The translations under genes were made by a program, and so were the position numbers. Shown here in pieces: positions 15,094-43,448 of a DNA stretch of 43,714 bases. Positions within the stretch are counted from its first letter, which is position 1. Each line of letters starts with the position of its first letter. The DNA lies in contig JAKBZR010000018.1 in NCBI GenBank assembly GCA_021842405.1, positions 1-43,714 on the forward strand, given 5' to 3'. The stretch is from a bacterium. Its GTDB lineage: Bacteria > Armatimonadota > Chthonomonadetes > Chthonomonadales > JAMCWF01. The notes under the pieces are model-generated. The model was not told where the DNA came from. It did not search any database and worked only from the letters and a program-made list of their open reading frames with translations.

Positions 15094-15150
15094 GTCATTG
15101 CGAGAAGCCGCGTACCGGCGACGAAGCAATCTCCTCTTGCCTAAGGGGAT
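15094..15150. repeat. Partial GTCATTGCGAG repeat
   Basis: GTCATTGCGAGAAGCCGCG and GGCGACGAAGCAATCTCC match the left half of the palindromic repeat at 1305. The right half is replaced by the family B element starting at 15151. Confidence 0.65.
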
Positions 15151-15308: not shown

Positions 15309-15351
15309 CGCCACTGCGAGCGGTGTGGGTTCAACTATAAGGAGGTGTGAG

Positions 15352-15846
15352 GTGAAACACCCGAATTCAAACAATCGGAAAACAAATAGGCGGCGATTTC
15401 TCTCCTACCTGGTAGGTCTAGCCGGTTTGTTACTGGTCGGTCTGGTTTCGGTTCCAATGGCCGCGCTCAGCCTATTCCCCGCATTCAAGCGGCGCAAGGA
15501 AACATGGCTGGATATCGGTCCGCTGGCCGATGTGGTGCTCGGTGATCCAACCGCATTCACCTACCGTTACAACAACCGAGATGGCTACCTGGATCAGCTC
15601 ATTCGCGGAACCGTCTATGTGGTGGCCGAAAATCTTCAATCGTTCACCGTGTTTTCCAATATTTGCACTCACGCCGGTTGTGCGGTGCGCTGGGAACCCG
15701 ACAAACAGGTGTTTTATTGTCCCTGCCACAACGGCATGTACAACATTAACGGTCAGGTGGCCGCGGGACCGCCGCCGCGCCCATTGGACCGCTTCCCTTA
15801 TAAGGTGGTCGGTGGCCGAATTCTGATCAAGATAAAAGGAGCCTAG
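15352..15846 (+). CDS. Rieske iron-sulfur protein of a bc-type complex
   Basis: 164 residues from GTG 15352, with GGAGG 6 bases upstream; a longer in-frame reading runs into a repeat and is rejected. TNRRRFLSYLVGLAG is a twin-arginine-like signal anchor, as expected for a Rieske protein exported folded. Cluster boxes: CTHAGC (Cys105, His107, Cys110) and CPCHNG (Cys123, Cys125, His126), giving the two Cys and two His ligands and the disulfide pair. It takes electrons from menaquinol at the Qo site of the cytochrome b encoded 4 bases downstream. The length matches short b6f/Rieske proteins of Gram-positive and green bacteria. Confidence 0.93.
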   Translation: MKHPNSNNRKTNRRRFLSYLVGLAGLLLVGLVSVPMAALSLFPAFKRRKETWLDIGPLADVVLGDPTAFTYRYNNRDGYLDQLIRGTVYVVAENLQSFTVFSNICTHAGCAVRWEPDKQVFYCPCHNGMYNINGQVAAGPPPRPLDRFPYKVVGGRILIKIKGA

Positions 15847-15850
15847 AGGG

Positions 15851-18316: not shown

Positions 18317-18346
18317 GGGTTGGCAGATTGGGCAACATAGGAGATT

Positions 18347-18557
18347 GTTGAAAAATACCGTAATACCCTACTGGGTCGTCATTCCGGGGCCGCAAAGCGG
18401 AACCCGGGATCTAAATCACCAGCATACCTCCCTGACGATTGGTAAGGAACTGGATTCCCGCCATCCACTCCACTGGAGTGGAGCCATGCGGGAATGACGA
18501 AGGGGAATGACGAAGGGGAATGACGAAGGGGAAGTATCCAGCGACTTTTTCAACAAC
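18347..18557. repeat. Family B-related element
   Basis: Begins GTTGAAAAATACCGTAATAC and ends CAGCGACTTTTTCAACAA, so the outer 9 bases are inverted repeats. It contains CTCCACTGGAGTGGAGCCAT and three tandem GGAATGACGAAGG units. The right end equals that of the copy at 3159. The gap 18317-18689 holds no gene. Confidence 0.65.
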
Positions 18558-18689
18558 CTCGTAAAGGATATGACCGGCATCATACAATGTATAGCAATTG
18601 AAACGTATGATTGGATTTAAACGGTTGAACTTCACTGCGACACGAAGCACCGCTCTGGGTAGCGGAGCTCGAAAGCGAGGTAAGTTAAG

Positions 18690-27563: not shown

Positions 27564-27693
27564 GGAGCTGTGGGGCTTTTGATTACATGATTCACATTTT
27601 CCTGACTATGGGCGGGACGGTTCAGCGGTGCCGAATGTTGCGAAAATGAGATGTCGTGCTGCATTCGGGAGTAATTGGGAAGGGGGAGGAGGT

Positions 27694-28374
27694 ATGACAC
27701 GATCAGGAGAGCACAATAACCCTGGATTATACGAAGGCGTATATACGTATCAAGAAGCTGCGCGTTTACTGAACGTAACCGTCTCACGTGTCTCCCGTTG
27801 GGCCGATGGCTATGTGTATCCATTGAGGTATGGGACGAGGTCATCTAGACCGATTTTGCAAGCCAGGGAGCACAAACCGCGGGTACTTTCGTTTAACGAG
27901 TTAATGGAACTCTTCTTTGTGCGTGAGTTCTTGGCGTTTGGGGTTTCCGTACCGCATATTCGCAATACCGCGGAGGCTTTAGCAAATGTGGTGGGCGAGT
28001 TTCCCTTTACCAAACGGAAGGTGTTAGTTAACGGGCGCGAGCTTCTGGTGCGATATACCGACGAAATCCTGCAAAGACCTGATATCGGCCAATTGGTGGC
28101 CGGATTTGCAGAGGAGTTCTGCAAGCAAGTAGAGATCGCAGACGATGTGATCAGCCGGTATTATCCGCAGGGGTTTGAGCGCCAGATCCTCCTTGCCAAG
28201 GGGCTGCGTGGCGGAGAGCCGGTCGTTTCATCCTCTGGTATTCCAACGCGAATTATCTATGCATTGTGGGAACAAGAAAAAGATGTTGACACTGTTGCCG
28301 AGTACTACGACGTGACCTCGGCTGAAGTGTCTTCGGCACTGCGATACGAAGGCGAATGGCGGCTCGCGGCGTAA
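27694..28374 (+). CDS. MerR-type HTH plus DUF433 antitoxin
   Basis: 226 residues from ATG 27694; a G-rich GGGGGAGGAGG precedes it, and a longer in-frame start at 27628 has none. The N-terminal helix-turn-helix is EGVYTYQEAARLLNVTVSRV followed by SRWADGYVYPLRYG. A central helical part contains ELMELFFVREFLAFGVSVPH. The C-terminal DUF433 domain (~170-226) includes GIPTRIIYALWEQEKDVDTV and AEYYDVTSAEVSSALRYE. DUF433 proteins are antitoxins that bind DUF5615 PIN-like toxins, and the next gene is exactly that. The two genes overlap by 19 bases. It probably represses its own operon through the HTH. Confidence 0.85.
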   Translation: MTRSGEHNNPGLYEGVYTYQEAARLLNVTVSRVSRWADGYVYPLRYGTRSSRPILQAREHKPRVLSFNELMELFFVREFLAFGVSVPHIRNTAEALANVVGEFPFTKRKVLVNGRELLVRYTDEILQRPDIGQLVAGFAEEFCKQVEIADDVISRYYPQGFERQILLAKGLRGGEPVVSSSGIPTRIIYALWEQEKDVDTVAEYYDVTSAEVSSALRYEGEWRLAA

Positions 28375-28754
28375 AACTGCTTTTTGACGAAAATATCTCT
28401 CAGCGGCATGTTTCGTTCCTTGCACAGGAATCACGGCTTGCGGAGATGCAGCACCTCACCTCTCGGGGTTGGCGGGGTACGCCCGATGTGGTGTGGATTC
28501 GATTGGCTGCTCAACAAGGCTTTGTGATCATAACTGGGGATCGGAACGAAAGGACACGTGGCTATACGGTGCAGGACATGAAGGGGCTCGGGGCGCAGGT
28601 TGTATTACTGGGCGGCTTCTGGGACCATATGTCACGTTGGGAACGTGCGAAGTGGTTGGTATCGAATATTGAAAAGGTACTAGCAGTTGTACAGCGCACC
28701 TCCGGAGCTTTCGTGTATCTTATGGATCGATACGCCAGAGTTAAACACCTTTAA
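28356..28754 (+). CDS. DUF5615 PIN-like toxin
   Basis: 132 residues; the ATG lies inside the end of the antitoxin gene. VKLLFDENISQRHVSFL supplies the first acidic residues (Asp11, Glu12), GTPDVVW the central Asp and VIITGDRNE the last one, the layout of Mut7-C/PIN-like nucleases of toxin-antitoxin modules. The expected action is RNA cleavage, restrained by the DUF433 partner. At 132 residues it is a little longer than the common 110-120. No frame damage is seen, so the module may be active. Confidence 0.85.
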   Translation: MAARGVKLLFDENISQRHVSFLAQESRLAEMQHLTSRGWRGTPDVVWIRLAAQQGFVIITGDRNERTRGYTVQDMKGLGAQVVLLGGFWDHMSRWERAKWLVSNIEKVLAVVQRTSGAFVYLMDRYARVKHL

Positions 28755-28993: not shown

Positions 28994-31750
28994 CTATTCA
29001 GCGATGAGATCCACTAGCCAGGTTGACGTGCGCCCGTCAAAGTCGGATTGGCTGATCCGCTTGAAGCGCCATACAATGCCGCTTGTAGCGCTGATGCGGT
29101 CACACCAGTGGCGTATGGCTTCGTCCTTAGCCTCCGTGCCTTCCCAGACCCGTCCCTTCGTCTCGATGATCCAGTTCACTTCGCATTCCGACTGTTGCAC
29201 GACGACCCAGTCGGGGTGGTAAAAGCCAATCGCCCCGCTGGGCTTGATGTAGTCAACGCGGAACTGCGTCCCTGATTCGCCCTGTTCCGTGGTGCCGAGC
29301 GCCGCGAAGCGCAGCACGTCGGTCGCCTTATCCAGGAACTCGGCGAAGCGACGCTCGAAATCGTTGTAGGTCGCGACGTAGTTGAAGATCGTCTTCTCCG
29401 CCTCGATAGGCGGGAGGTTCCGGCGCCAACTGAATGGCTTCGTCTCCGAGAGGCGAAAGTCCGCCTTGTCGAACTCAATGGCGCGGCGCTCGATCGTCAA
29501 CTCGGCAATCTTGCGAGCTAGGTACTTCGCGATGCCTTCTTGAATATCGAGGCGCGCGAGGTGTGAGCGTAGCGTCTCCTCGTCCACGTTGACGGGCCTG
29601 CCGAAGCAGCGTGTGGTGACGTAGTCGCGCACAGCGGGATAAAGCTCGGCGAAGCGGTTGGGAAGCCTGGCCCGGTCGATGACTTTGTTGGTGATGCTCG
29701 CGAGCAGCTCCTGAGCCGCCGGCAACTCGCCGCCAGCGATGTCAGTCTGGTGAACCTCGGTCTCCGTGGTCGCGAACTCGAGTCGAAGCTTCACGCGGAA
29801 GGGCTCGGCCAGTTCCTCCTGCTCGTAGATGGCGTCCAGCTTGCTGACGTCGAGTTCTGACAGCTTGCGAATGTCGTGCTCAAGGCTCGGCTTCGTGATC
29901 GGGATCGTGATGTCGTACTTTAGACGCTCCATAAGCGGCGCGATAATGATGGGTGGCGGTGGGTCCGTCTTCGTGCTCGCGACGCCCACACCCTCGGCTT
30001 CGAGCTGCGTCCGAAGGACGTTCAGCAGGTTCCGGGTGCCAAGGACCTCCAGCGTCTGCGTACGGTCCGGGCTTACCTCGGTCATCAGGCGCAGGCCGCG
30101 CCCGATCACCTGCTCGGGTAGGATCTCAGCCTTCGCGGTGAAGGGGCGCAGACCCAGCACGACGGTGACGTTCCGAACGTCCCAGCCCTCGCGCAGCATC
30201 ATCACGCTGACGATCGCCTTGATCCGGCTCTCGGCCCTATCGATGTCGCGCGCGGCCTCGCGGGCCACGTCGAGGTCCCTCTTCGTGATCTCACCCGCGG
30301 CGTCGGTGTGGATGACCAGCACCTCCGCCTTCCTAAGCCCGAACTCCTTGGTCTTCCACAAATACTCGCCGATCGCGTCGGCATAGACATTCTTCTCGGC
30401 CATGATGAAAAGCACCGGCCGCGTGCAGAGCTGTTTGTATACCTGATGGTGCTCCTTCCAGCGCTGCACCGCCGCCCGCAGCCAGTAGCCGTACTTCTCA
30501 CCGACGTTGTCCGCGGTGACGCCGTCGGGGTCCTCCTGGGCTTGCTTCGGGTCATCCTCCTTGGTGACGATGAGCGGCGCCTTGACGATGCGGTCCTCCA
30601 CCGCCTGGGCGAGCGGGTAGTCGCAAACCGTCCAGGGGAAGTACATCCCGTTCTGGTCCTTGGGCGTGGCCGAAAAGTCGAGCCAGAGCGCGAGGCCCTT
30701 GGGCAGCGCGCGGTGGATCGCGAGGAGGGACTGGCTCCACTGGAGGTCCTCATCGTGGACGTGGTGAGCCTCGTCGTTCATCACCACGAGATCCTTGAGC
30801 GACTTCACCCGCTCCAGCATAGAGCGCTGGCCCGAGGCGGCCAGGTCCTTCGCAGGCTTCTTGCCGAGGAGCGCTTCGATGGCGTTCGCGGGCGTCCACT
30901 GGTCGTCACGTGATTCGTAGAGCTGATGGATGTTGGTGAGGAAGAGGTTCCCGGATGGGTCAGGCTCGGCGGCCTCGCCACGCAGGATAACTTTCTGTCC
31001 AAATGCGCCGCGCCACTCCGGTGGTATCAAGGGCAGCTCGTAGAAGATGCGGTTGGCCGCGAAGTCCTTTTCGAGCCGCTGATACACGATCACGTTCGGC
31101 GCGACGATCAGGAAGTTCGTCGACAGTTCCGAGCCCGGCACCCGCTGCTTGTGGAAGCGGGCCCAGACGATGGCCATCGCGATCACCCACGTCTTGCCCG
31201 AGCCGGTGGCCATCTTGAAAGCAAAGCGCCGCAAGTCCTCAGGCGGTAGGTCCTGCACGCCCTCGTCGTCCAGCTCCGGCACGTAGCGCCGGAGCTGGCG
31301 GCGCCCGTCCATCGTGGTCTGGAACGTGATGTTCTTGGTGAAAAGGTCCTTCTCGAAGATCGTCGCGTGCGCCTGAATGAGCTTCTGCGCGTCGCGCTGC
31401 CCAGCGATCTCCACCAGCCACGCCAGCGTCTCGATCGCCTCTCGCTGGCAGAAGTAGTAACGGAATGGCACGCCGAAGCCGGGGACTTCGTGGTCCTCGT
31501 CGAACCAGTACTCGAACAGGCGCCGCGTGATATCGGACGCGCCCTCGTAGCCGCCCTCGCGCCACGCATCTACCGCGGCGCGGATCTTGGGGACCAGCAG
31601 CAGACGGCTCGGGCGGCGACCGGAGGTCTCCTCCCGCCAGCCGGTCGCGGCCGCGTCGTCCTTGATCAGGTAGGACGTGGGCTTCTCCCATGGCCGCCGC
31701 CCTGGGATCTCCGGCAGGTCCTTGTCGTAGGCGATAACGGCCTTGGCCAT
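28994..31750 (-). CDS. res: Type III-like restriction subunit: SF2 helicase plus PD-(D/E)XK nuclease
   Basis: 918 residues; ATG at 31750, two bases after the mod stop. Helicase motifs: Walker A MATGSGKT (~180-187), DEAH at 326-329 (VVMNDEAHHVHDED), motif III LDFSATPKD (~358-364) and motif VI EQVIGRGLRLM (~546-556). The C-terminal nuclease has Asp847 (YHPDWVVVQ) and Glu863-x-Lys865 (WIIETKGR), the type III Res pattern. Res with Mod translocates or slides on DNA and cuts at unmodified asymmetric sites. The size fits known Res proteins (~900-1000). It is the last gene of the six-gene operon that starts at 40776. G+C is visibly higher than in the HD/YwgA region. Confidence 0.9.
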   Translation of the reverse strand: MAKAVIAYDKDLPEIPGRRPWEKPTSYLIKDDAAATGWREETSGRRPSRLLLVPKIRAAVDAWREGGYEGASDITRRLFEYWFDEDHEVPGFGVPFRYYFCQREAIETLAWLVEIAGQRDAQKLIQAHATIFEKDLFTKNITFQTTMDGRRQLRRYVPELDDEGVQDLPPEDLRRFAFKMATGSGKTWVIAMAIVWARFHKQRVPGSELSTNFLIVAPNVIVYQRLEKDFAANRIFYELPLIPPEWRGAFGQKVILRGEAAEPDPSGNLFLTNIHQLYESRDDQWTPANAIEALLGKKPAKDLAASGQRSMLERVKSLKDLVVMNDEAHHVHDEDLQWSQSLLAIHRALPKGLALWLDFSATPKDQNGMYFPWTVCDYPLAQAVEDRIVKAPLIVTKEDDPKQAQEDPDGVTADNVGEKYGYWLRAAVQRWKEHHQVYKQLCTRPVLFIMAEKNVYADAIGEYLWKTKEFGLRKAEVLVIHTDAAGEITKRDLDVAREAARDIDRAESRIKAIVSVMMLREGWDVRNVTVVLGLRPFTAKAEILPEQVIGRGLRLMTEVSPDRTQTLEVLGTRNLLNVLRTQLEAEGVGVASTKTDPPPPIIIAPLMERLKYDITIPITKPSLEHDIRKLSELDVSKLDAIYEQEELAEPFRVKLRLEFATTETEVHQTDIAGGELPAAQELLASITNKVIDRARLPNRFAELYPAVRDYVTTRCFGRPVNVDEETLRSHLARLDIQEGIAKYLARKIAELTIERRAIEFDKADFRLSETKPFSWRRNLPPIEAEKTIFNYVATYNDFERRFAEFLDKATDVLRFAALGTTEQGESGTQFRVDYIKPSGAIGFYHPDWVVVQQSECEVNWIIETKGRVWEGTEAKDEAIRHWCDRISATSGIVWRFKRISQSDFDGRTSTWLVDLIAE

Positions 31751-31752
31751 GG

Positions 31753-33675
31753 CTACTTCACCTCCACGTCGAAGGCCTGCGAGGTGTCGTTGCCGAAGAT
31801 GTCGATCACCTTGACGAGGATGCTGTACCTGCCCGGCTTCTCGTAGGTGTGCGTGTCAGAGGTGAGAAGGAGCTTGCGCTCCTTGCGCGTGCGGTAAGCC
31901 ACCCAGCCCTGCATGAAGGTGTCGTTCCGGAAGTCCCAGTCCACCGCCCAGTAGTCGATGTAATCCGACCACTTCTTCACCTTGCTGCGCACGTCCTCGG
32001 GAATCATCTCGGTGTTGGGGATGACGAAGTCCTTGAGCGCCACCTGCGCGGTGAGCTTCTTCGGCTGCTTGATCTCGGCCTCGAGGTAGGCCAGCTCGAA
32101 GAAGCGCACGTCGCCCTTGGCGGCGGCCTGCTGCTCCATCACCTCGCGCGGGATCTGAAGGAGCAGGAGCTTCACGCCCTTCTTCTTCGCCGCCTCGACC
32201 ATCAGGTCATAGAGGCCCATCTCCCACTCCCAGCCGAGGACGTGCAGTTCGCCCTGCTTGAGCTTCGCGCACTCGTCCACTGCCGCGTCGATCTCGGCGA
32301 TGGTCACCGGCGCATCCACCGCGCCGATGTGGACCATGGCCTTGCCCATCTTCCCGTGCAGGTGTTCCATCCCGGCCACCGGCTGCGCGCCGTAGAGCTT
32401 GAGGATGAAGGCGAGATACTCGTAGAGTGCTTGCTCGGTGAGCGACTTGTCTTTCTTTTCGCCGAACGTCACGCCCTGCCAGTACTGGCGCTCGTACTTG
32501 CCGAGGTTCAAGACTTCAAAGGGCTTGCAGTTCTCGATGCCGAGCAGCCGCTTGCGGGTGACGTGGATGCCCCAACGGCCGAGGTCGCAGCCGATCCAGC
32601 GGCGGCCCAGCTTCTCGGCTACGGCCAGCGTGGTGCCTGATCCGCAGAAGAAGTCGGCAACCAAGTCCCCCGGTTCCGATGAGATATCGAGAACACGCTC
32701 AAGGAGCTTCTCAGGCTTCTGTGTCGCAAAGCCGGTGATTTCTGACGTCGTGCCGATCTTGTATGCCCGCGGGTCGGCATACGCCTGCTGGATATCCGAC
32801 CAGACCGTCGATGCAGGAACTCCCTTGCTCTCGTCCAAGTACTGCTTTTCCCAATAGCGCTTGCCCGTCTCCTTTTCGATCCTCTGCCGCTTTCGGAATC
32901 GCCGACCATCTGCATCCACGTGACGAAACCAGTCGTTGATGTACTTCTCTGAGTAGGCCAGGTGATAGACCTTGTACCTGTGGTTGCCGTACTGCTTGGC
33001 GAAGGCCAGCAGGAAGTCGTGGGCCTTTACCAGCTTCGATCCCGAGACACGGCCGCCCGAGGGCGAACCGTATGCCCAGACTATCTCACCTAAGGAATTG
33101 TCCTCGCCAAACACCTCGTCGAGGACAGGCCGAAGGTGGTGTCCCACGTACCAGTCCAAGTGGACGTAGAGCGTCCCTCGTTCGCTCAACAGGTCCCGCA
33201 TCAAGCGAAGTCTTGCCCCCATCATCTCGAACCAGGAATCTCTCCCACGACCCCAGGTGTCGCGATACGCCTTCTCCTCGATGACCGACTGGGCCTTGGC
33301 GACTTCCCCCCCCGATTCGCCGATTGGTGCCGTAAACGAGAAATCGGCTCCTGTCGCAAACGGCGGATCGATGTAGATAAGATCAATCTTCCCCGCAAAC
33401 TTCTCCAAGAGTGACCCCATCACCAGAAGGTTGTCGCCCCAGATCAGCTTGTTCCGCCAGCCGGCTTCGAACGTGTCGCCTTCCTTCCCCTCGTAAACGT
33501 CGAAGAGCGTGCCCTGCATGCCTCCCTTCCTGGCCTCCCGGGTGGCGCGGCTCTCGTTGACGGTCTCGATGACCTGGAAGGGCAGGCTGACGCGCGGCAC
33601 TTCCTTGAGCGTGCCGTCCTCGTTGTACTTGCCGGGCCACACCAGTTCGGTTTTGGTGATGTCGATCTTCGCCAT
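31753..33675 (-). CDS. mod: Type III-like adenine-N6 DNA methyltransferase (Mod)
   Basis: 640 residues; ATG at 33675, five bases after the stop of the gene before it. The order of motifs is that of beta-class adenine methylases: catalytic DPPF at 103-106 (IYIDPPFATG) before the AdoMet motif FCGSG at 343-347 (VADFFCGSGTTLAVAEKLG). Between them lies the target-recognition region (~200-320). After ~400 there is a long non-catalytic part, which presumably contacts Res. The last ~35 residues (TYEKPGRYSILVKVIDIFGN) look like an Ig/PKD-type strand pattern. It methylates one adenine in the site that Res would cut. The recognition sequence cannot be predicted here. Confidence 0.9.
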   Translation of the reverse strand: MAKIDITKTELVWPGKYNEDGTLKEVPRVSLPFQVIETVNESRATREARKGGMQGTLFDVYEGKEGDTFEAGWRNKLIWGDNLLVMGSLLEKFAGKIDLIYIDPPFATGADFSFTAPIGESGGEVAKAQSVIEEKAYRDTWGRGRDSWFEMMGARLRLMRDLLSERGTLYVHLDWYVGHHLRPVLDEVFGEDNSLGEIVWAYGSPSGGRVSGSKLVKAHDFLLAFAKQYGNHRYKVYHLAYSEKYINDWFRHVDADGRRFRKRQRIEKETGKRYWEKQYLDESKGVPASTVWSDIQQAYADPRAYKIGTTSEITGFATQKPEKLLERVLDISSEPGDLVADFFCGSGTTLAVAEKLGRRWIGCDLGRWGIHVTRKRLLGIENCKPFEVLNLGKYERQYWQGVTFGEKKDKSLTEQALYEYLAFILKLYGAQPVAGMEHLHGKMGKAMVHIGAVDAPVTIAEIDAAVDECAKLKQGELHVLGWEWEMGLYDLMVEAAKKKGVKLLLLQIPREVMEQQAAAKGDVRFFELAYLEAEIKQPKKLTAQVALKDFVIPNTEMIPEDVRSKVKKWSDYIDYWAVDWDFRNDTFMQGWVAYRTRKERKLLLTSDTHTYEKPGRYSILVKVIDIFGNDTSQAFDVEVK

Positions 33676-33680
33676 GCGTG

Positions 33681-36600
33681 TCAGTCCTCTCGTTCTTCTG
33701 ATGAGGGATCGACCTCGGCAACGTCAAGCCAGCCGTGGTCGAAGGTAAAGGTGCGGGCCTTTCCGACCGGATCCTGGATGCGGACGATTCGAGCGCCGGC
33801 AGTGCCCGCGTGCTCCACGGCGTAGAGCCAATACTTCTCCCGGTGTTCGCGAGCGCACTCGAACTGCGTGCGCGACAGCCCAACCGGACGGTCGTCGAGG
33901 CTTCCAGTCATTGCCTTCACCTCGCACCAGCGAATCGGGTGGCCGTCCGGCCCAGGTTCGAAGAGATCGAAGCCGGGGTTGTGGGTCGTTGTGGTCTGCC
34001 ATCTTTTCTCGCGCTTGCAAATGAGCTCGATGGCTTTCGCTTCGAGCGCCATGCGCGCCGCCTGATCGAGGCCATCCGGATCGGGGCCTTCGCCGGGGTG
34101 GACCGCGACATATGAAACGAATGGTCGACCTCCGGCGCTTCCTGGAGTGCGCTTGCCGTCACCAGCGTTTGAATGAGATCCCGTCAATTGTCCTCCATGG
34201 CCGGCCGTCGTTCCTTCGCCCGGTCCTCGCGAACTCGGTGATCCTGCGCGATTGGACGCAGCGCTCCATCCTTTGCCATCGCCGACGCGCTGTGTACTGT
34301 CACCGTTGGCCCGGTCGGAGCCGTTAGGATCATTCGCCGCTGGATCCGGAACCGGTGCAGTCGGTTGCGTTCCGATGCCCAAGCGGTTCTTGATAGCGTC
34401 GTCAACGGGCTCGGGCGCATCATCGGCGACGGCGACATCAGAATTCTCGACAATGCCGGAGCCGGAGGGAATTTGTGCAATAGCGTCTTCCACCTCTTGG
34501 CTTTCGCCGATTGCGGCGATCAGGTCTTCGACGCGTGTCAGGCCGCGCTTCTTGAGAATTTCGATTACTTTGGGCTCGATGCCGGCCTCGGTTGCGAGCT
34601 GGTCGAGGATAGGCTTCTTGAATATGATCTTTGTGGCTAAGAACGCGTGCCGGGACCACCCCAGCGACTCAAGCGTGACAACCTCGGGCCGCTGGAGTTC
34701 GCCATCGGAGTCTGGAACCCAAGCGGTGCTATTAAGCGCTCGGACAAAGGCGGGGTCAAGCATCGTCCATCGGTGGCGGTAGTAGTACCAGTTGTAGCTC
34801 GCGGAGAAAGCACCCGTGCCGCGACGATCCTCGACATCCTTCAGCGCTTCCCACAGCAGTTGCGCGCGTGCGCGTTTCGCTTCTGGATCGAGCGACGAAA
34901 ACAGGGTAAGGAGTTGAGGCAGACCGCGAAGCGTATGGTCCTGGATGAGTTCTTCAGACGACATGCTCTCACACCCAGCGGACCGCCTAAGTTCGGCGCG
35001 TTGCTCCCACGAGAGCGCACACTCGACCTGTTCCTGGACGAGGGAACGGCTAGCCCCACAGGACTCAAGTAGGTCGCGGACCGCATTGCCGCGCAGGCAC
35101 TCATAGGAGTCATCGACAACCATCGCGCCAGCTACGCCGGCGAGCAGCGCGGTCAGCCGCTCGGTCGCGAGATACAAGTCGGCCGGCTTGGAGATATGCT
35201 TGCGCCCGTCTCCGAGGTCCACCGACTTGACGAATGGAGTATCGCGCAGCGCCGCCGAGAGTTTTTCGCGCTGACCACGGTGCTGCGTGCCGAATGCGTT
35301 GAGGATTCGCTTGAGGTCGGCCTCGTACTCGTCGCCGTCGGCCTCGACAGGCTCCTTCTTGTACTTTGGGATGATGTTGCGCACGACATCGTCAACGACG
35401 TCCGGCTCGGTCAGTCCCAGTGCCTTGAGGAACTCCAGGGCCTTCTCCGTGCTGCACACCGATTTCGGGACCGTCGGGAAATCGGTCCTGATCCCGCTCG
35501 GCAGGAAAGCCTGGGGTTGCCCGCCCGATTCCGCCACCACGTGGGTCCCGCCCTCGATGCGCACCAGAGGGATGTTGCTGACTCGCCCCTGGCGCACAAG
35601 GGCCGACTGGCCGCCCAGAAACTCGTAGAGCTTGAGGATCCACTCGTCGGGCTGGGCCTCCAGAAACTTCTTGTTGAGCCGCGGCAGAATCTGTTCGGGC
35701 GTCAACTCGGTGACCTTTAACTCGTACAACAGGTAATTGCGCAGCGTGGATGCCGTATCGCGGGTGATGTCGCCGCTGAGCCAGTGCACTTCTTCGGTTG
35801 AATCGAGTAGCGTCGCCAATTGCTTCGAGTCGAAGAGTTCTCGCAGCTCTTGTGTCCTTGCGAGTCGAGCGTTCTTTGCCGCGGTCCACCCGCCGCCAGC
35901 GCGTGGCAGCAACGGATTCGAAGCCAGCGCCGTTCGCACCGCATCGAAGAGCGGTGCAAACATGCTGCCTTCGGGGTACTTGGTCCGTTCAATCGGAAGG
36001 CTCTGCAGTGCCGCAACATCGAGAAGATTCTGCGACTTGAGAACCTCCAGGGAATCAAGCAGGAGCGTGGCCGTTTCTTGGACGAGCTTAACGCTCCAAG
36101 GGTCTCGCGGCGGCACATTGTCGCGGCTCGGCGTCGTGCGATAGGGCCCCTGCACGAGAAACCCAAGGTGAGTCGTCACGACCGTCGGGAAGAACGCGTT
36201 CAGTGGTGACGCGTCAACACGCTGGATCGTCCACTGCTTGCTTTCCTTGTCCTCTTGAAGAAGAAAGGCAATCTCGATGAATCCGGCCAGTGTGCCTGCT
36301 TCGGTTCTCGCCTCCCTGGAGAAGACTAGCCAGGTTTCGTCGACGACGGGTTCTCCCTCGCGTTCACCTACGAGTGTCACGCGACGACTGCCGTCACCCG
36401 TACTCTCGGCCTTCCCCTTGAGATAGAGCCCGCTCGCCCCTCCGTTCACCGACCACCCGATCTCCTCAATCTGGCGCAAAAAGAGCAGCGTCCTCGCTCC
36501 AAGCTTGCTCAAACTGTCCGATACCGAAGATCTGAGTCCTGCATCCCCAGCACGGAGCGGAAGCACGATCTCCGTCTGATCTGCCGCACGCCGGGTAGAC

Positions 36601-37013
36601 GGTGCCTTCGTGGGGAACACGAAGCTGTCGATGGCGAAGTCTTCGTCACCGGAGTGCACCTCAGGACGATCGGTAATCGCGTAGACCGATTTGAAGCCAA
36701 TGCCGAACCGACCGATGTCCGTCAGGTCCTTGGTTGTCTCGCCGACGCCGCATACGCCCTTCACGTCTTCGAGCGTGAACGGATTACCGTAATGTACGAT
36801 TCGAAGGCTAGTCGGAGTCAGTTCGAACAGAACTTCTCGCGAACCTTTCCAATCTTTTCGCCGCTTCAGGGCATCCTCAGCGTTTTGCAAGATTTCGAAG
36901 ATGAAATGCGCGCTGCTGTCGTAGCGATTGACGAGGAGATCACGTCCCCAACGGCCAACGTTGCCATACTCGGCACGGTTGGCGTCACGAATGGCGGCGT
37001 AGTCTGAAGGCAT
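33681..37013 (-). CDS. Large Bergerat-fold ATPase (sacsin/HATPase_c_3 type) with C-terminal DUF3883 (NOV) domain
   Basis: 1110 residues from ATG 37013, which overlaps the helicase stop by one base (TAATG). A longer in-frame reading to 37268 is only an extension into the helicase gene. The N-box is FIFEILQNAEDALKRR (Asn44, Glu46, Asp47), G1 is degenerate (VHYGNPF) and the G2 lid is DIGRFGIGFKSVY, as in Hsp90/sacsin-like ATPases. A long middle part has no family I know. A low-complexity Gly/Ser/Asp linker (~940-985) leads to DUF3883: NPGFDLFEPG (Asp1016), then WCEVKAMTG (Glu1031, Lys1033), a D..ExK arrangement like PD-(D/E)XK nucleases. Such proteins recur next to helicases and methylases in defence islands; the mechanism is not established. 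Confidence 0.85.
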   Translation of the reverse strand: MPSDYAAIRDANRAEYGNVGRWGRDLLVNRYDSSAHFIFEILQNAEDALKRRKDWKGSREVLFELTPTSLRIVHYGNPFTLEDVKGVCGVGETTKDLTDIGRFGIGFKSVYAITDRPEVHSGDEDFAIDSFVFPTKAPSTRRAADQTEIVLPLRAGDAGLRSSVSDSLSKLGARTLLFLRQIEEIGWSVNGGASGLYLKGKAESTGDGSRRVTLVGEREGEPVVDETWLVFSREARTEAGTLAGFIEIAFLLQEDKESKQWTIQRVDASPLNAFFPTVVTTHLGFLVQGPYRTTPSRDNVPPRDPWSVKLVQETATLLLDSLEVLKSQNLLDVAALQSLPIERTKYPEGSMFAPLFDAVRTALASNPLLPRAGGGWTAAKNARLARTQELRELFDSKQLATLLDSTEEVHWLSGDITRDTASTLRNYLLYELKVTELTPEQILPRLNKKFLEAQPDEWILKLYEFLGGQSALVRQGRVSNIPLVRIEGGTHVVAESGGQPQAFLPSGIRTDFPTVPKSVCSTEKALEFLKALGLTEPDVVDDVVRNIIPKYKKEPVEADGDEYEADLKRILNAFGTQHRGQREKLSAALRDTPFVKSVDLGDGRKHISKPADLYLATERLTALLAGVAGAMVVDDSYECLRGNAVRDLLESCGASRSLVQEQVECALSWEQRAELRRSAGCESMSSEELIQDHTLRGLPQLLTLFSSLDPEAKRARAQLLWEALKDVEDRRGTGAFSASYNWYYYRHRWTMLDPAFVRALNSTAWVPDSDGELQRPEVVTLESLGWSRHAFLATKIIFKKPILDQLATEAGIEPKVIEILKKRGLTRVEDLIAAIGESQEVEDAIAQIPSGSGIVENSDVAVADDAPEPVDDAIKNRLGIGTQPTAPVPDPAANDPNGSDRANGDSTQRVGDGKGWSAASNRAGSPSSRGPGEGTTAGHGGQLTGSHSNAGDGKRTPGSAGGRPFVSYVAVHPGEGPDPDGLDQAARMALEAKAIELICKREKRWQTTTTHNPGFDLFEPGPDGHPIRWCEVKAMTGSLDDRPVGLSRTQFECAREHREKYWLYAVEHAGTAGARIVRIQDPVGKARTFTFDHGWLDVAEVDPSSEERED

Positions 37014-39874
37014 TAGCCTCGGGCCTCCTTTGAGATCACGCCCTCGGCGTGGCACAGCATCCGCAGGTCGCATTCCTTGCAGATCGCCGCCTCGGGGGGC
37101 GTCGTCACCGCGAACTCGCGCGCCTGGATGCGGCGCACGGTCTCGTCGAAGTGGCGGCCGGCTTCCTCGACCAGCGTGGGATCGTAAGGCAGGACCATCA
37201 GAGCATTTTCCTTGTGTGGCTCCGACGTCCAGTAGAGGAGCAGCCGGTCCACGTGCCGGCCGTGGCAACGCTCCAGGATGTGCGCATAGGTGCAGAGCTG
37301 GCGCTCGTAGGCCGCGATCAGCTCCGGGCTGTCCTTGGGCCGCGGCGAAGTCTTGAAGTCGAGCAGCTCGAGCTTGCCGTCGCCGCCAAGCAGCAGGTCC
37401 ACCTTGCCGACCAGGATGTAGCCGTCTTTCTCCAGCGACACGTCCACCTCAGTCTGGATCACCCGGCGCATCTCGTCGCGATTCTGGCGGAAGTAGTTCA
37501 TCACCTGCTCGAACGCGGACTCCTTCGCCGCGTCGCCGATCGGACGCACGTCCGAGAGCGTGAGGAAGCGGAAGGTCCGCTCGAAGAGCTCGCGGATACG
37601 CGACTCATCCAGCGTGTCGAGCTTTCCGTCGAGCGCGATGCGATGGATCTCTTCGATGGTCTGGTGCACCAGCAGGCCGAAGAAGATCACCGCCGAGCGG
37701 GAGGGCGTGAAGTCGTACTCGCGAAAGAACTGGTACTGGCGTGGACAAGTCTCGTAAATCTTGAGGTCGCCCGTGAAGCTGTAGGTCTTCTTGACCGGCA
37801 TGCGCTCACGCACCTCGAAGCGCTGCGCCGCAAGCAGCTCCTTCTCAACGTAGGGCCATTGGGGGAGCCCCTGCCAGATGAGGGTGAAGTGGTCCTTCGG
37901 CGTCTCGTGCGCGGTGAGGACCAGCACTTTCTGGGGACGCGAGAAGGCAACGTAGTGCAGGCGCATCCGGTCGAAGAGCGTGATGCGGCTTTCCGGCTCG
38001 AAGGGCGGCCGGTGGTAGAAGGGGCCCAGGTCGCGGTCGATCTGCTTGGGGCTGGGGAGCTGGGTCGCGAGCGAGCCGACCACGACCACCGGGAACTCGA
38101 GCCCCTTGGCCTGGTGGATGGTCATCACCTGCACATGGCCCTTGGGGAAGGGCTGGTCGGGGTCTTCGTACTCGTTGATGCCGCCGTCGTAGAGCAGACG
38201 GAGGAAGCTGTTGAAGAAGTGCAGGCGGAGGGACTCGCGGTTCCGATGCGTGACGACGGTGTAGTGGTAGTAGCTCTGAAAGACGTTCAGGAGCTGGGAG
38301 AAGATCGCGAGGCTGCGGGCCGTGTTCTCGTTGCGCGCGGCGCTGCGAAACGGTTCGAGCGCGAGCAGATGGTAAAGGTAGTCGGCCGGGCGGAGGTCAA
38401 GCGCCTCGTCCTCGCCCAAGTCCGCGATCTCGCCGGTCCAGCGCTGGAGCGCCTCCGCGAGTGGGTGGGGCGACGCAAAGCGCCGGCCAAGCTGCACGAT
38501 AGCGTCGTCCACGTAAGCCGCGAGCGCCGCCACGGCGCCTGCGACCTGGCCCCGGCCCTCCCCGAACCAGCCGAAGATCACCGCGAAGCAACCAACGAGA
38601 TCGCGAACCTCCGCGTCCTTGAAGTACGCCCGCGCGCGCGGGCAGAATGCGGGGATACCCTTTGCGCCGAGCGCGGCGAGGTAGGGCCCGCTGTGGTCCT
38701 CGCGAACGCTGTGGAGCAGCAACGCGACCTGGCTGTAGTCGGCAATGACGCCGTCTGCCTTCAGGAAGGCGACGAGATCCGCGAAGCGTGCGGCCTCGTC
38801 CCGCTGGTCCCGCCCCCAGATAGCGATAGCGGCCGGGTAATCGGGTTGCGGCGTGTTGGCGTCGGCCTGGATCGTCTTGTCGTAGCGGAATGGAGTGCCG
38901 CTCGGATTCGCCCAGTCGGCAGACGCCATCCAGCGGTCGTAGCGCTCGACGATCGTTCGGTGGGAGCGGTAGTTCGTTGTCAACTTGACGATCTCGCAGT
39001 CTGGCATACGTTGCGGGAATTCAAGGATGTTACGAACCGTTGCACCCCGGAAGCGGTAAAGACCCTGGTCCTCGTCACCGACGACGCAAAGGTTCCTTGT
39101 CTTCTCGGTGAGCTTCAGCAGAAGCTGCTCCTGGACGTAGTTCGTGTCCTGGTACTCGTCCACGAGGACGTACTTGATCCTACTGGTTTCGGCCGCTATA
39201 ATGTTGGTGTCAGCCAAAAGGTCAAGGGCATCCCTTTGGAGGTGAGCGAAGTCCACGCGGTTGTCATGGCGCAACGCACGCTGGTAGGCGAGATAGGCCT
39301 CCCCAATCGCGCGCAGAAAATTATCGGTCGAACGGATGAGTACTTCTGGGTCAACCAACTCCTCGGTGATCTTGTCGAAGTAGGCGCGGACCCCTTCGAT
39401 TGCGGTCCACCGCGTCTTCCAATGATCGAGGTAGACACCTTCCCGAGCTTGCCCGATAATCTCGTCAAAGTGCTCGAAGATGAAGAGGAGCTGGGTCAGC
39501 TCATCCAGCGTCTCATAGTTGTGCCCCAGGTGCGTCCTGTGCCGGTATCGCTGAAGCAGGCTGTTGCTCAGCCCATGGATGGTCGAGGTGGTGAGTTCAG
39601 AAAGGTCGCCCTTGTAGCCGATCTTGCGTGCGGCGGCGGCAATTCGATCACGCATCTCGAAGGCGGCCTTTTCCGTGAACGTGCAAAGAATCACTTCATT
39701 TGGGGCTGCCTTGTCAAAGAGTAGGAGGTTCAGAGCCCGGAGGATGATGCTGTAGGTCTTTCCTGAGCCGGGTCCGGCCACTACAAGCAGAGGGCCATCC
39801 AGATACCCGATCACCGACCGTTGCGCATCGTTCAGATTCGGGTAGCCCTCAGCGATGGCGGGAGCGATCATCAC
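37013..39874 (-). CDS. UvrD/Rep-type helicase fused to a Cas4/AddB-like Fe-S nuclease domain
   Basis: 953 residues; GTG at 39874 (ATG follows as codon 2) overlaps the radC stop. Superfamily 1A motifs: LNDAQRSVI, Walker A AGPGSGKT (33-40), TFTEKAAFEMRDRI, VLVDEYQDTN, VVGDEDQGLYRFRGA, LTTNYRSH and VMTIHQAKGLEFPVVVVGSL. The C-terminal ~250 residues are a RecB/Cas4-type nuclease: GKVDLL (Asp ~826), LLDFKTS (Asp ~839, Lys ~841) and QLCTYA. Four cysteines, Cys710 (YETCPRQYQFF) and Cys932/935/941 (CKECDLRMLC), have the spacing of the [4Fe-4S] cluster in AddB and Cas4. One chain can thus unwind and degrade DNA ends. The third gene of the operon. Confidence 0.9.
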   Translation of the reverse strand: MMIAPAIAEGYPNLNDAQRSVIGYLDGPLLVVAGPGSGKTYSIILRALNLLLFDKAAPNEVILCTFTEKAAFEMRDRIAAAARKIGYKGDLSELTTSTIHGLSNSLLQRYRHRTHLGHNYETLDELTQLLFIFEHFDEIIGQAREGVYLDHWKTRWTAIEGVRAYFDKITEELVDPEVLIRSTDNFLRAIGEAYLAYQRALRHDNRVDFAHLQRDALDLLADTNIIAAETSRIKYVLVDEYQDTNYVQEQLLLKLTEKTRNLCVVGDEDQGLYRFRGATVRNILEFPQRMPDCEIVKLTTNYRSHRTIVERYDRWMASADWANPSGTPFRYDKTIQADANTPQPDYPAAIAIWGRDQRDEAARFADLVAFLKADGVIADYSQVALLLHSVREDHSGPYLAALGAKGIPAFCPRARAYFKDAEVRDLVGCFAVIFGWFGEGRGQVAGAVAALAAYVDDAIVQLGRRFASPHPLAEALQRWTGEIADLGEDEALDLRPADYLYHLLALEPFRSAARNENTARSLAIFSQLLNVFQSYYHYTVVTHRNRESLRLHFFNSFLRLLYDGGINEYEDPDQPFPKGHVQVMTIHQAKGLEFPVVVVGSLATQLPSPKQIDRDLGPFYHRPPFEPESRITLFDRMRLHYVAFSRPQKVLVLTAHETPKDHFTLIWQGLPQWPYVEKELLAAQRFEVRERMPVKKTYSFTGDLKIYETCPRQYQFFREYDFTPSRSAVIFFGLLVHQTIEEIHRIALDGKLDTLDESRIRELFERTFRFLTLSDVRPIGDAAKESAFEQVMNYFRQNRDEMRRVIQTEVDVSLEKDGYILVGKVDLLLGGDGKLELLDFKTSPRPKDSPELIAAYERQLCTYAHILERCHGRHVDRLLLYWTSEPHKENALMVLPYDPTLVEEAGRHFDETVRRIQAREFAVTTPPEAAICKECDLRMLCHAEGVISKEARG

Positions 39875-40569
39875 AGCAGCCCCGCCTTTCGGAAGCTGAA
39901 CACGGTGTCCACCGAGATAATCAGATGGTCAACGATCTTAAGGTGGACGACCTCTGCGGCGAGTACGATTATTCGTGTCAAGAGCTTGTCCTGTTCGGTG
40001 GGATCGACATGACCATTGGGATGGTTGTGGGCCAGCACAAGGGCCACCGCTCCCCTCCGCAGCGCGGACTCCACTACCCGGCGTGGATAGACAGAAGCTC
40101 GGTCGACAGTCCCTTCTTCGAGCCGCTCGATTCCATCGCGCAAGAGGCGGAGGCCGGAGTCGAGGTAGGCTACCTCGAAAACCTCATTACGCAGGGCGCC
40201 GATCCGAGTCCGCCACGTGCGCTCAAGCTCCTCCTCACCCACGGCCGACTCCGCCCCTTCCGCACACTGCTGCAGGTAGAGCGCAGCGGCTGCCCGGATG
40301 ATCTGTAGCGCCACCGGTGCTACAGAGCCGATCCCTTTCACTTGGCGGAGTTCATCGAGAGGGGCGTCCAAAATCGCCCGCAGATTTCCGAACCGTTTGA
40401 TTAGTGCCTTTGCTGGTTGCTTTACATCGGAACGTGGAATCGCTAGGGTGAGGAGGAGCTCAATGACCTCATAGTCAGCGAAGCCCTCTAGACTGAACTT
40501 TAGAAAGCGGTCACGAAGGCGCTGCCTGTGTCCGAGATGGCTGGGGTCGAGCCGGCTCATCAAGATCAC
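39871..40569 (-). CDS. radC: RadC-family JAMM protein
   Basis: 232 residues from a GTG whose first bases overlap the TGA of the preceding HTH gene (GTGA). Residues ~12-98 contain the helix-hairpin-helix UvrC-like part (GNLRAILDAPLDELRQVKGI, then GSVAPVAL). The MPN/JAB domain follows with its zinc site HNHPNGHVDPTEQD: His181, His183, Asp194 (H-x-H-x10-D). The metal ligands are intact. RadC has no proven role in repair; copies on genomic islands are common and sometimes tied to defence. Being the second gene of a methylase/helicase operon, it is probably part of that system rather than housekeeping (inference). Confidence 0.9.
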   Translation of the reverse strand: MILMSRLDPSHLGHRQRLRDRFLKFSLEGFADYEVIELLLTLAIPRSDVKQPAKALIKRFGNLRAILDAPLDELRQVKGIGSVAPVALQIIRAAAALYLQQCAEGAESAVGEEELERTWRTRIGALRNEVFEVAYLDSGLRLLRDGIERLEEGTVDRASVYPRRVVESALRRGAVALVLAHNHPNGHVDPTEQDKLLTRIIVLAAEVVHLKIVDHLIISVDTVFSFRKAGLL

Positions 40570-40776
40570 TTTCTCCGCCGTGGCTTCTCCTTGGTCGTCC
40601 GCCCGCCCACGTTCTTATTCGCCTTAAGCCAAACGTCAACGTCCTCCCTGCGGAAGCGCCACTGGTACCCGACATGGGAGGCCGGAATCGAGCCGGTGTT
40701 CGCCATCCGGTAAACCGTGTCGCTACTAAGGCAAAAGTAGTGGCTACCCCCCCCTCAAACTCATTAGCTTTTCCAT
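40566..40776 (-). pseudogene. Excisionase-family HTH protein, frame broken at a G8 (C8) tract
   Basis: The C-terminal two thirds read YFCLSSDTVYRMANTGSIPA, SHVGYQWRFRREDVDVWLKA, NKNVGG..., a MerR/excisionase-type HTH (HTH_17). The ATG at 40776 gives MEKLMSLRGG and then a TAG, because eight G (C8 at 40747-40754 on the plus strand) put it out of frame. With seven G the ATG frame would join the HTH frame directly. There is no other start before the HTH. The TGA (40566-40568) overlaps the radC GTG, which marks it as the first gene of the operon. It is either a pseudogene, a base-call error or a phase-variable switch. No integrase is next to it. Confidence 0.75.
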
Positions 40777-40819: not shown

Positions 40820-40848
40820 ATAATATCAGGATGTTGCGAACTTGTCAA
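40820..40848 (-). promoter_or_regulatory. Sigma-70 promoter of the defence-like operon
   Basis: On the minus strand, TTGACA (40848-40843), exactly 17 bases, TATTAT (40825-40820). Transcription would start near 40813, about 37 bases before the HTH ATG. It is the only strong promoter I see ahead of the six genes. The -35 lies 11 bases from the end of the family A element at 40859. Confidence 0.75.
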
Positions 40849-40858
40849 ACGGGCGAAA

Positions 40859-41059
40859 GAGTTCAGTTTCGTGGGAATGATTTGTGGTAGTATTGGTCGC
40901 CTCCCTCACCTCGGCCTCCCCCGTAGGGGCGCACCTGTGTGTGCGTCCCCTCTCAATGACATCCTCATTGAGAGCGAAGCGAAGCAATCTCATTTCCCAG
41001 GATTGGGAAATGAGTAGGAGTGAGCGCCTGCCCCAAAAATCACCCAGAGAACTGAACTC
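40859..41059. mobile_element. Family A element, complete copy
   Basis: 201 bp: left GAGTTCAGTTTCGTGGGAAT, right (other strand) GAGTTCAGTTCTCTGGGTGA. The inside carries GAGAGCGAAGCGAAGCAATC and a CCCAGGATTGGG hairpin. The same family is found in the left half of the window, so the right part of the window belongs to, or has long lived in, the same genome. Confidence 0.78.
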
Positions 41060-41147
41060 ATTCAAATGGGCGTGGAGGCCGGAAGGGAATCATGTCCGCG
41101 TTGGTAAAATAACATGGTGGAAGGTGATCGGCATTTTCTACTTCATT

Positions 41148-42518: not shown

Positions 42519-42571
42519 TCCCTTACCCCTTGCCGCTCACCAGCGACATTATTATAATACCCTATAACAGC

Positions 42572-42599
42572 AAAAAAGTGCTAATATTAGCACTTTTTT
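42572..42599. terminator. Bidirectional intrinsic terminator
   Basis: A perfect 28-base palindrome (AAAAAAGTGCTAAT and its complement ATTAGCACTTTTTT), so an A/T-flanked GTGCTAAT stem works on both strands. Confidence 0.75.
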
Positions 42600-42622
42600 A
42601 TTGCGAGAGGGGATTATAATAC

Positions 42623-42668
42623 GGGAATAGGACGCATAAGCCCTATAAGTCCTATATGTCCTATTCCC
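42623..42668. repeat. TAGGAC/GTCCTA palindrome, copy 2
   Basis: Starts GGGAATAGGAC and ends GTCCTATTCCC (perfect 11-bp inverted repeat), with CATAAGCCCTATAAGTCCTA inside. Confidence 0.65.
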
Positions 42669-43171
42669 GTTCCACCAGCCATTTTCTGCGCGGAATTGGT
42701 GATAGACCGCCCGTGTGCCCCTTCTTATCTTCTCAGTTAGCCGCACCCACTCGGCACGGCGAGTGCCGAGATGCAGCCCGCCACTTGGATAAAACGGCTC
42801 AGGAGAATCAGGGCGGCGACTAAAAACCTCTAATTCAGTGGGTTCGTATTCGCACGCCGAGATTTCGCAAGGGTATCCCAATTGGCAACGAAATGCAGCC
42901 GCTGGAATAAGAATTTTCTGGGGCCGAAATCGCCAAAACGTATCCTAACCCGTTTTCGGCCCTGGAACGCCTATAAAATCCTTCTAGCCGCTACGCTAGC
43001 CGCTCCCAGCAGATTTCCTGATGGCGGCTAACCGCTGGGCGGCAGCTTTGCCGGCCGCTATCTGGGCGGCGGTTCGTTTGGGCTTCGGATCGAGCGCCCG
43101 TGATTTCCGATACGGCTACCAATAATACAGCTTCATAAGCGCCTTTGCCGATCTCCGGCGCGATGTAAGGG
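42669..43171. other. Gene-poor stretch
   Basis: No reading frame here has both a credible start and family resemblance. On the minus strand a short run without a start (about 42991-43110; KPKRTAAQIAAGKAAAQRLA then AIRKSAGSG) has protein-like, basic composition and could be a decayed gene end. If the array at 43172 has a leader, it would lie at the right end of this stretch, but I cannot recognise one. Confidence 0.4.
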
Positions 43172-43448
43172 CACTCTCCCACGCACGTGGGGGTGAACCG
43201 ACCACTCCCGATTCTTGAGCAAATTGCTCAGCCACTCTTCCACGCACGTGGGGGTGAACCCATATTAGGGTGCCAATATTGCACCCCACTTCCAGGGCAC
43301 TCTCCCACGTGGGGGCGCACCGCCGAAATCTGCCGAATAAGGGTATTATAAAACTCCACGCATGTTTGGTGAACCGCCGAAATTTGCCGAATAAGGGTAT
43401 TATAATAACAGATATTAGACCATTACCCCCTATATGTGGTGAGCCAAT
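43172..43448 (+). CRISPR. Decaying type I-E-like CRISPR array
   Basis: Two good 29-bp repeats (43172-43200, 43233-43261), exactly 61 bp apart, share CACGCACGTGGGGGTGAACC and differ at two positions. 29 + 32 is the type I-E period, and the repeat has the I-E form (palindromic CCCACG..CGTGGG, then GAACCG). A third copy (43298-43322) has lost four bases of its centre; a fourth (43353-43376) and possibly a fifth (near 43425-43445) are more damaged. The spacers after copies three and four are near-identical (CCGAAATYTGCCGAATAAGG). Decay rises to the right, as expected at the trailer end. No cas gene is in the window. Confidence 0.65.

What the first reader, a model, noticed from the sequence alone, without database searches (positions are those of the whole stretch)
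28994..40776. Six-gene operon HTH-RadC-UvrD/nuclease-HATPase/DUF3883-Mod-Res: candidate undescribed defence system
Seen: six frames on one strand joined by overlaps (GTGA, GTGATGA, TAATG) or gaps of 5 and 2 bases, with one strong promoter at the head. Known: Mod/Res form type III restriction systems; UvrD-Cas4-like nucleases, DUF3883 Bergerat ATPases and island RadC proteins each recur in defence islands. Inference: the six act together. Mod would mark self DNA; Res and the helicase-nuclease would destroy foreign DNA; the 1110-residue ATPase may sense or gate; RadC may process DNA or protein. I do not know a named system with this complete set, unlike plain type III RM, DISARM, BREX or Druantia.
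Basis: partly seen in the sequence, partly recalled or inferred. Interest (0 to 1): 0.88.

Follow-up and report, generated by a model that had tools for sequence, protein, structure and literature searches.

The report
Type III restriction operon, swappable cassette
This is a known kind of bacterial anti-virus DNA-cutting operon (a type III restriction system with a helicase-nuclease) that has a position, apparently not described before, where different extra defence genes are swapped in and out, here a relative of the Tiamat defence protein.

Summary
Five intact, tightly packed genes are confirmed on the minus strand: RadC, UvrD-Cas4-like helicase-nuclease, Hsp90/sacsin-type ATPase with a DUF3883 (NOV_C) nuclease domain, Mod and Res. 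The promoter-like site is confirmed. The sixth gene (HTH) is a frame-broken relic. The gene set is not unique: UvrD-ATPase-Mod-Res recurs in order in several other phyla, and the full five-gene set recurs at 40-61% identity. The idea of a wholly undescribed system is only partly supported. UvrD-Cas4 beside type III Mod/Res was published in 2017 (PMC5704561), and the ATPase belongs to PADLOC's TmtA (Tiamat) family. What looks new is the architecture. A conserved RadC-UvrD / Mod-Res core encloses one slot between uvrD and mod, which in different loci holds nothing, a Schlafen-AlbA ATPase, the short TmtA-like ATPase, full-length TmtA, or two genes. The slot turns over faster than the core: the window's closest core relative (86% identical) has Schlafen there instead. 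Mod's target-recognition region is hypervariable, as expected if Mod sets specificity. Most likely it is type III restriction plus DNA-end degradation plus an exchangeable backup effector. All function is inferred. Verdict: new variant of a known kind, interest 0.45.

The parts
40820..40848 (-). promoter-like site TTGACA-17-TATTAT with extended -10, head of the operon
   Evidence: 11 of 12 consensus matches, 0.2 expected by chance; a consensus match only
40566..40776 (-). frame-broken relic of an AlpA/excisionase-like HTH gene
   Evidence: ATG frame stops after 10 codons, HTH in another frame without start codon; intact relatives (37-45% identity over about 50 aa) precede UvrD in L025, L027, L033, L111, L112
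39871..40569 (-). RadC (HhH + JAB/RadC domain), system-associated subfamily
   Evidence: PF04002 6.5e-29; motif AHNHPNG...EQD kept; 67-73% identical RadC directly upstream of UvrD in L020, L073, L074, L075, L095, L098, L109 and 47% in L113; the genome's other RadC is only 30% identical
37013..39874 (-). UvrD-Cas4-like SF1 helicase-nuclease; helicase motifs, PD-(D/E)XK motifs and Fe-S cysteines present
   Evidence: PF00580 5e-62, PF12705 5e-25; motif alignment
37049..37765 (-). PD-(D/E)XK (RecB/Cas4-like) nuclease domain of the UvrD protein
   Evidence: residues 704-942; (KVDLLLGGDGKLELLDFKT, YERQLCTYAH, CKECDLRMLC)
33681..37013 (-). slot gene: 1110-aa Hsp90/sacsin-type ATPase with C-terminal NOV_C/DUF3883, TmtA (Tiamat)-like
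   Evidence: Hsp90-like fold by model; recurrent at this position, alternatively replaced or absent
33795..34043 (-). NOV_C/DUF3883 domain with intact PD-(D/E)XK-like motif (GFDL...WCEVKA)
   Evidence: D1016, E1031, K1033 invariant in 14 homologues
31753..33675 (-). Mod, type III adenine-methyltransferase subunit (DPPF...FCGSGTT)
   Evidence: PF01555 5e-37; PADLOC MTase_III 4e-119; matches EcoP15I Mod 4zcf
32746..33138 (-). hypervariable target-recognition region of Mod (residues about 180-310)
   Evidence: 19-36% identity in this stretch against about 71-92% in residues 1-120 and 320-640
28994..31750 (-). Res, SF2 translocase-endonuclease of a BPTD_3080-like branch, motifs intact, C-terminal PD...ETKG nuclease

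Best explanation
The locus is a type III restriction-modification operon of the UvrD-Cas4-associated branch, carrying an exchangeable accessory cassette. Shown: a conserved core of (RadC)-UvrD/Cas4 followed by Mod-Res, and one slot between uvrD and mod whose occupant changes between closely related cores. Inferred: Mod recognises and methylates one asymmetric adenine site set by its variable region. Mod-Res cuts DNA lacking that mark. The RadC-UvrD/Cas4 pair unwinds and degrades or processes the broken ends. The slot protein (here a TmtA/Tiamat-like Hsp90-type ATPase carrying its own PD-(D/E)XK domain; in sister loci a Schlafen-AlbA ATPase or full-length TmtA) is a second-line effector or guard that acts when restriction is engaged or blocked, as PrrC does beside EcoprrI.
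For: Same-order UvrD-ATPase-Mod-Res in other phyla. In a Res-centred survey, 8 of 8 close-Res loci with context carry UvrD, against 0 of 14 loci in the distant plain Mod-Res branch. Catalytic motifs intact. Mod variable region near 19% identity within an otherwise about 80-90% identical protein. Slot occupants: ATPase, Schlafen-AlbA, both, ATPase + ImmA/IrrE-HTH, full TmtA, or none, placed directly between uvrD and mod. Slot turnover: the window's sister core L098 is 86% identical (99/98 support) and has Schlafen; L026 (short ATPase) and L109 (full TmtA) are sisters (100/100); 7 changes, no clustering of slot labels. Slot ATPases interleave with stand-alone ones. Precedent for a second effector embedded in a restriction locus: PrrC/RloC (PMC3710099).
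Against: No experiment. The slot protein could act alone like Tiamat, without contact with Mod-Res. The slot is empty in 5 of 8 surveyed loci, so it is not needed for the core. L020 has RadC-UvrD-ATPase with no Res match at E<=1e-15 in its genome. Most loci are from metagenome-assembled genomes. The end-degradation and guard roles are inferred from families only.
Confidence: 0.62

Rival explanations
1. Defence-island packing: an ordinary type III RM system, with RadC-UvrD and a Tiamat-like gene as independent neighbours that share a promoter but no mechanism.
For: Slot and RadC are optional; the ATPase also occurs without the core (L029, L032, L034, L038-L041); L022 continues into SIR2 and HerA defence genes.
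Against: UvrD is constant in the close-Res clade and absent from the plain Mod-Res branch. RadC-UvrD, UvrD-slot and slot-Mod are coupled by overlaps or gaps of a few bases in many loci. An independent architecture (HTH-UvrD-Mod-Res/TnsA divergent from the ATPase) brings the same kinds of partner together at low identity.
Confidence: 0.22
2. One obligatory multi-subunit machine of all five proteins, a wholly new system.
For: One promoter-like site and tight coupling; the complete set recurs in L113.
Against: RadC and the ATPase are missing or replaced in many otherwise intact loci; the HTH is broken here.
Confidence: 0.08
3. The RadC-UvrD part serves DNA repair or recombination of the host, and the restriction genes were inserted beside it.
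For: UvrD-Cas4 resembles AddAB/RecB nucleases; PMC5704561 considers a RecB-like role.
Against: UvrD of this kind travels with Mod-Res on plasmids and viral-collection contigs and across phyla; this RadC differs from the genome's other copy.
Confidence: 0.05

Closest known systems
UvrD-Cas4 / type III RM neighbourhoods of Hudaiberdiev et al. 2017 (PMC5704561)
   Same: UvrD-Cas4 fusion beside Mod and Res; HTH and Schlafen-like ATPase-HTH neighbours in some loci
   Different: The text does not mention the Hsp90/DUF3883 ATPase, RadC, or a single exchangeable slot; I could read the text and legend but not the figure
Tiamat (TmtA; PADLOC models PDLC03964-03972; that TmtA is Tiamat is recalled from Millman et al. 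2022, not readable here)
   Same: SACS/Hsp90-type N-terminus and NOV_C C-terminus; TmtA models hit at 2e-65; full-length TmtA (1510 bits) sits in the same slot in L109
   Different: The window protein is 1110 aa against model lengths of 1063-1782 and matches no model over its whole length; Tiamat is recalled as a single-gene system, here it lies inside a type III RM operon
Type III restriction-modification (EcoP15I type)
   Same: Mod with DPPF and FCGSGTT plus variable recognition region; Res with SF2 motifs and C-terminal endonuclease
   Different: A distinct Res branch (weak to Pfam RE_endonuc, partial to BPTD_3080) tied to RadC-UvrD and a slot gene
Restriction loci with an embedded second effector (PrrC/EcoprrI, RloC; discussed in PMC3710099)
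   Same: An extra effector gene inside a restriction locus
   Different: Here type III; slot occupants are Hsp90-like or Schlafen-type ATPases and several alternatives share one position
Gabija (GajB), DISARM, BREX, Druantia, MADS, Hma
   Same: Helicase, methylase or ATPase plus nuclease themes
   Different: No GajA, PglZ, DrmA/B, DruE or HerA gene inside the operon; only the generic UvrD/GajB similarity scored

Membership tests
Type III restriction-modification | beta-class Mod with DPP[FY] and FxGxG motifs and a recognition region between them | tested here: met
Type III restriction-modification | adjacent Res with SF2 helicase motifs and C-terminal endonuclease | tested here: met
   (GSGKT, DEAH, SAT, PD...ETK); ResIII 1e-16, RE_endonuc 9e-5 just below cut-off (22.7 of 23.4 bits)
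Type III restriction-modification | ATP-dependent cleavage of two inversely oriented unmethylated sites | not testable with these tools
   needs enzyme assay and long-read methylome
UvrD-Cas4 / Mod / Res locus (PMC5704561) | UvrD-like SF1 helicase fused to pfam12705 Cas4-like nuclease | tested here: met
   PF00580 + PF12705; motifs
UvrD-Cas4 / Mod / Res locus (PMC5704561) | gene in a neighbourhood with type III Mod and Res | tested here: met
Tiamat (TmtA) | protein matches TmtA models | tested here: met
   best 2e-65, but only part of each model is covered; PADLOC's own thresholds and pipeline were not run
Tiamat (TmtA) | full-length match to one TmtA model | tested here: not met
   best stretches 39-459 of 1655, 72-909 of 1486, 1291-1511 of 1563; the L109 slot protein does meet it (6-1508 of 1563)
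Tiamat (TmtA) | single-gene anti-phage activity | not testable with these tools
   needs plating assay
Gabija | GajA (OLD-type ATPase-TOPRIM) next to GajB | tested here: not met
   no such gene in the operon

The most novel reading that the evidence does not exclude
The uvrD-mod interval is a dedicated swap site in which GHKL-ATPase effectors (TmtA/Tiamat-like Hsp90-type, Schlafen-AlbA/HATPase_c_4) are exchanged as interchangeable second-line effectors controlled by the Mod/Res/UvrD core, so Tiamat would be, at least here, a restriction-coupled effector rather than a stand-alone system.
Probability: 0.3. Interest if true: 0.66.

Novelty: new variant of a known kind. Interest (0 to 1): 0.45.

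Why it matters
As far as the papers I could read go, Tiamat has no known mechanism and RadC's role is disputed. Finding both beside one sequence-specific restriction core gives each a testable trigger (unmethylated or cut DNA) and partner. A single slot with alternative effectors would offer a natural swap experiment: same core, different cargo, different phage range. It also suggests where to look for new effectors: between uvrD-cas4 and mod.

Tried and rejected
Wholly novel six-gene machine: rejected, because core neighbours were published, RadC and the ATPase are optional and the HTH is broken. Strict co-inheritance of the ATPase with the core: rejected (slot labels not clustered; sister cores differ). 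RadC as the genome's only copy: rejected. Genes of BREX, DISARM, Druantia or Gabija inside the operon: none found beyond generic similarity. A chimeric contig: unlikely, since the same adjacency recurs in independent genomes and the upstream repeat occurs on many contigs of this genome. An RNA gene in the window: none. Flanking repeats marking an island: no clear direct repeats at both ends. A paper naming the whole set: none found in 8 searches of open-access papers; subscription journals and most preprints are not held. The ATPase structure model has low confidence (pLDDT 69.5, pTM 0.51) and was used only for the Hsp90-like N-terminus. The HTH similarity search used one read-through of the broken bacterial HTH peptide as a query, so its percentages are approximate.
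Full report
OBSERVATION. On the minus strand, five long intact frames follow one another: RadC 40569-39871, UvrD/PD-(D/E)XK 39874-37013, the ATPase 37013-33681 (1110 aa), Mod 33675-31753 and Res 31750-28994. A strong promoter-like site with extended -10 lies at 40848-40820. The sixth gene is not intact. The excisionase/AlpA-like HTH between 40776 and 40566 sits in a frame without a start codon, and the frame that starts with ATG ends after 10 codons. The operon has 61.8% GC; the flanks have 54.5% and 52.2%, which fits horizontal arrival.

DOMAINS. Pfam gives UvrD-helicase plus PDDEXK_1 and Cas_Cas4; SACS (Hsp90-like) plus NOV_C/DUF3883; N6_N4_Mtase; ResIII with a sub-threshold RE_endonuc; RadC plus UPF0758_N. 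PADLOC models name the ATPase TmtA (2e-65) and Mod MTase_III (4e-119). That TmtA is the Tiamat protein is my recollection of Millman et al. 2022; that paper is not held. Motif alignments across loci show intact catalytic residues in all five proteins, including the Fe-S cysteines of the UvrD nuclease domain and a complete GFDL...EVK motif in NOV_C. The ATPase model (pLDDT 69.5) matches Hsp90 and sacsin N-domains (sequence profile). Mod's best solved relatives include EcoP15I Mod.

RECURRENCE. A search of GTDB genomes with the ATPase gave 16 loci. UvrD-ATPase-Mod-Res in the same order and strand occurs in Acidobacteriota (L022, L023; L021 with interrupted genes), Chloroflexota (L024), Actinomycetota (L026) and Rhodothermota (L028, with Res on another contig, L100). 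It also occurs in a genome of the window's own phylum (G129, split over two contigs). Nitrospira L020 has RadC-UvrD-ATPase without Mod-Res, and its genome has no Res match at E<=1e-15. A viral-collection contig, L113, carries RadC-UvrD-ATPase-(ImmA/IrrE-HTH)-Mod-Res at 40-61% identity, so the full five-gene set recurs. A second architecture, L027/L033/L111/L112 and partly L025, has the ATPase divergent from HTH-UvrD-Mod-Res(TnsA-like); the ATPase there is 46-51% identical, and UvrD and Mod are about 34-42% identical. UvrD-Mod-Res without the ATPase occurs on plasmids of Blastomonas, Vibrio and Nitrosomonas, and with two small unknown genes in between on one of Spirosoma.

CORE AND SLOT. To avoid selecting on the ATPase, I searched 1,631 genomes of five phylum samples with Res (the E-value limits differed) and read the neighbourhoods. 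Leaving out the centre genomes, eight loci with Res at 56% identity or more had readable context (G129, G158, G470, G489, G551, G587, G1059, G1181). UvrD is upstream in 8 of 8, one of them with a large internal deletion (L095). RadC precedes UvrD in 5 of 7 where that part is visible. The interval between uvrD and mod holds the ATPase in 1, a Schlafen-AlbA/HATPase_c_4 protein in 2 and nothing in 5. In 14 loci with Res at 31-39% identity there is Mod-Res and no UvrD in the stretch read; a few of these contigs are short. Adding the ATPase-selected and viral-collection loci, occupants of the interval are: short TmtA-like ATPase (window, L021, L022, L024, L026, L028, G129), ATPase + Schlafen (L023), Schlafen (L073, L098), ATPase + ImmA/IrrE-HTH (L113), full-length TmtA of 1496 aa (L109; 1510 bits over 6-1508 of 1563 model positions) and none (L074, L075, L076, L095, L099). 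Junction sequences show most occupants beginning within a few bases of the uvrD stop and ending close to the mod start.

TURNOVER. A tree of concatenated UvrD + Mod (without the variable region) + Res places the window beside L098 (86% identical over 2298 columns, support 99/98), whose slot holds Schlafen; L026 (short ATPase) and L109 (full TmtA) are sisters at 100/100. Slot labels need 7 changes, no fewer than shuffled labels, and starred branches force at least 3 for the ATPase label; RadC presence is likewise unclustered. The bootstrap had not fully settled and many forks are open, so the tree is used only for those sister pairs and the lack of clustering. In the ATPase tree, slot members interleave with stand-alone ones. 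So the core is the more stable unit and the slot is exchangeable.

SPECIFICITY. Across 12 core Mods, residues about 180-310 fall to about 19-36% identity to the window protein, with a minimum of 19%, while residues 1-120 and 320-640 keep about 71-92%; Res and UvrD have no such dip, and the ATPase has only a low-complexity linker at about 820-940. This is what sequence-specific recognition by Mod predicts.

RADC. It is 67-73% identical to RadCs in the same position in seven other loci (47% in L113) but 30% to the other RadC of the same genome, so it is a system-associated subfamily. Published views differ: a predicted nucleic-acid-processing JAB domain (PMC5512222), or similarity to metalloproteases rather than nucleases (PMC11981726). 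I assign it only to the UvrD partner role, by position.

MECHANISM (inferred). Mod-Res marks and cuts as in EcoP15I. RadC-UvrD/Cas4 processes ends. The slot protein combines a GHKL-type ATPase with a domain that probably acts on nucleic acids (NOV_C PD-(D/E)XK, or Schlafen AlbA_2) and is most likely a second-line effector, by analogy with PrrC/RloC embedded in restriction loci (PMC3710099). Whether it is controlled by the core is open.

KNOWN AND NEW. PMC5704561 reported UvrD-Cas4 fusions most often next to type III Mod/Res, sometimes with HTH/WYL and Schlafen-like ATPase genes, and proposed a defence role. It names neither RadC nor the Hsp90/DUF3883 ATPase in the text; its figure could not be read. 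The new elements here are therefore the single exchangeable slot, the Tiamat family as one of its occupants, and the recurrent RadC. None of this was found in the papers searched, which cover open-access papers only.

LIMITS. Most loci come from metagenome assemblies; sample sizes are small; the Res survey covers five phyla; no function was tested.

Noticed in passing
window 27628-28754 (+): HTH/DUF433 gene followed by a DUF5615 PIN-like gene, a likely toxin-antitoxin pair directly beside the 3' end of the operon.
   Followed up: partly
window 40850-41080: Dispersed repeat just upstream of the operon promoter; 54 matches in the same genome on many contigs, MITE- or REP-like.
   Followed up: partly
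window 12879-20990 (+): Cluster of multihaem cytochrome, cytochrome b/c and CcmF-like genes next to a Crp-family regulator (10776-11570): an electron-transfer cluster.
   Followed up: no
window 42550-42700 and 43170-43410: Palindromic and direct short repeats (TATTATAATA arms; CACTCT...CACGTGGGG; AAGGGTATTATAA) in a gene-poor stretch at the contig end.
   Followed up: no
L095 10789-16584: RadC-UvrD-Mod-Res locus in which UvrD has lost residues 78-913, leaving its two ends: natural deletion or assembly collapse.
   Followed up: no
L020 6436-13141 (Nitrospira sp. CR1.3): RadC-UvrD-ATPase without a matching Res in the genome: a degraded system, or a sign that this trio works alone.
   Followed up: partly
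L104 (Methanomethylovorans hollandica plasmid pMETHO01): Archaeal plasmid with an Hsp90-like relative (33% identity) directly after a helicase gene and with a methylase, a DEAD helicase and a restriction endonuclease gene nearby on the other strand.
   Followed up: no
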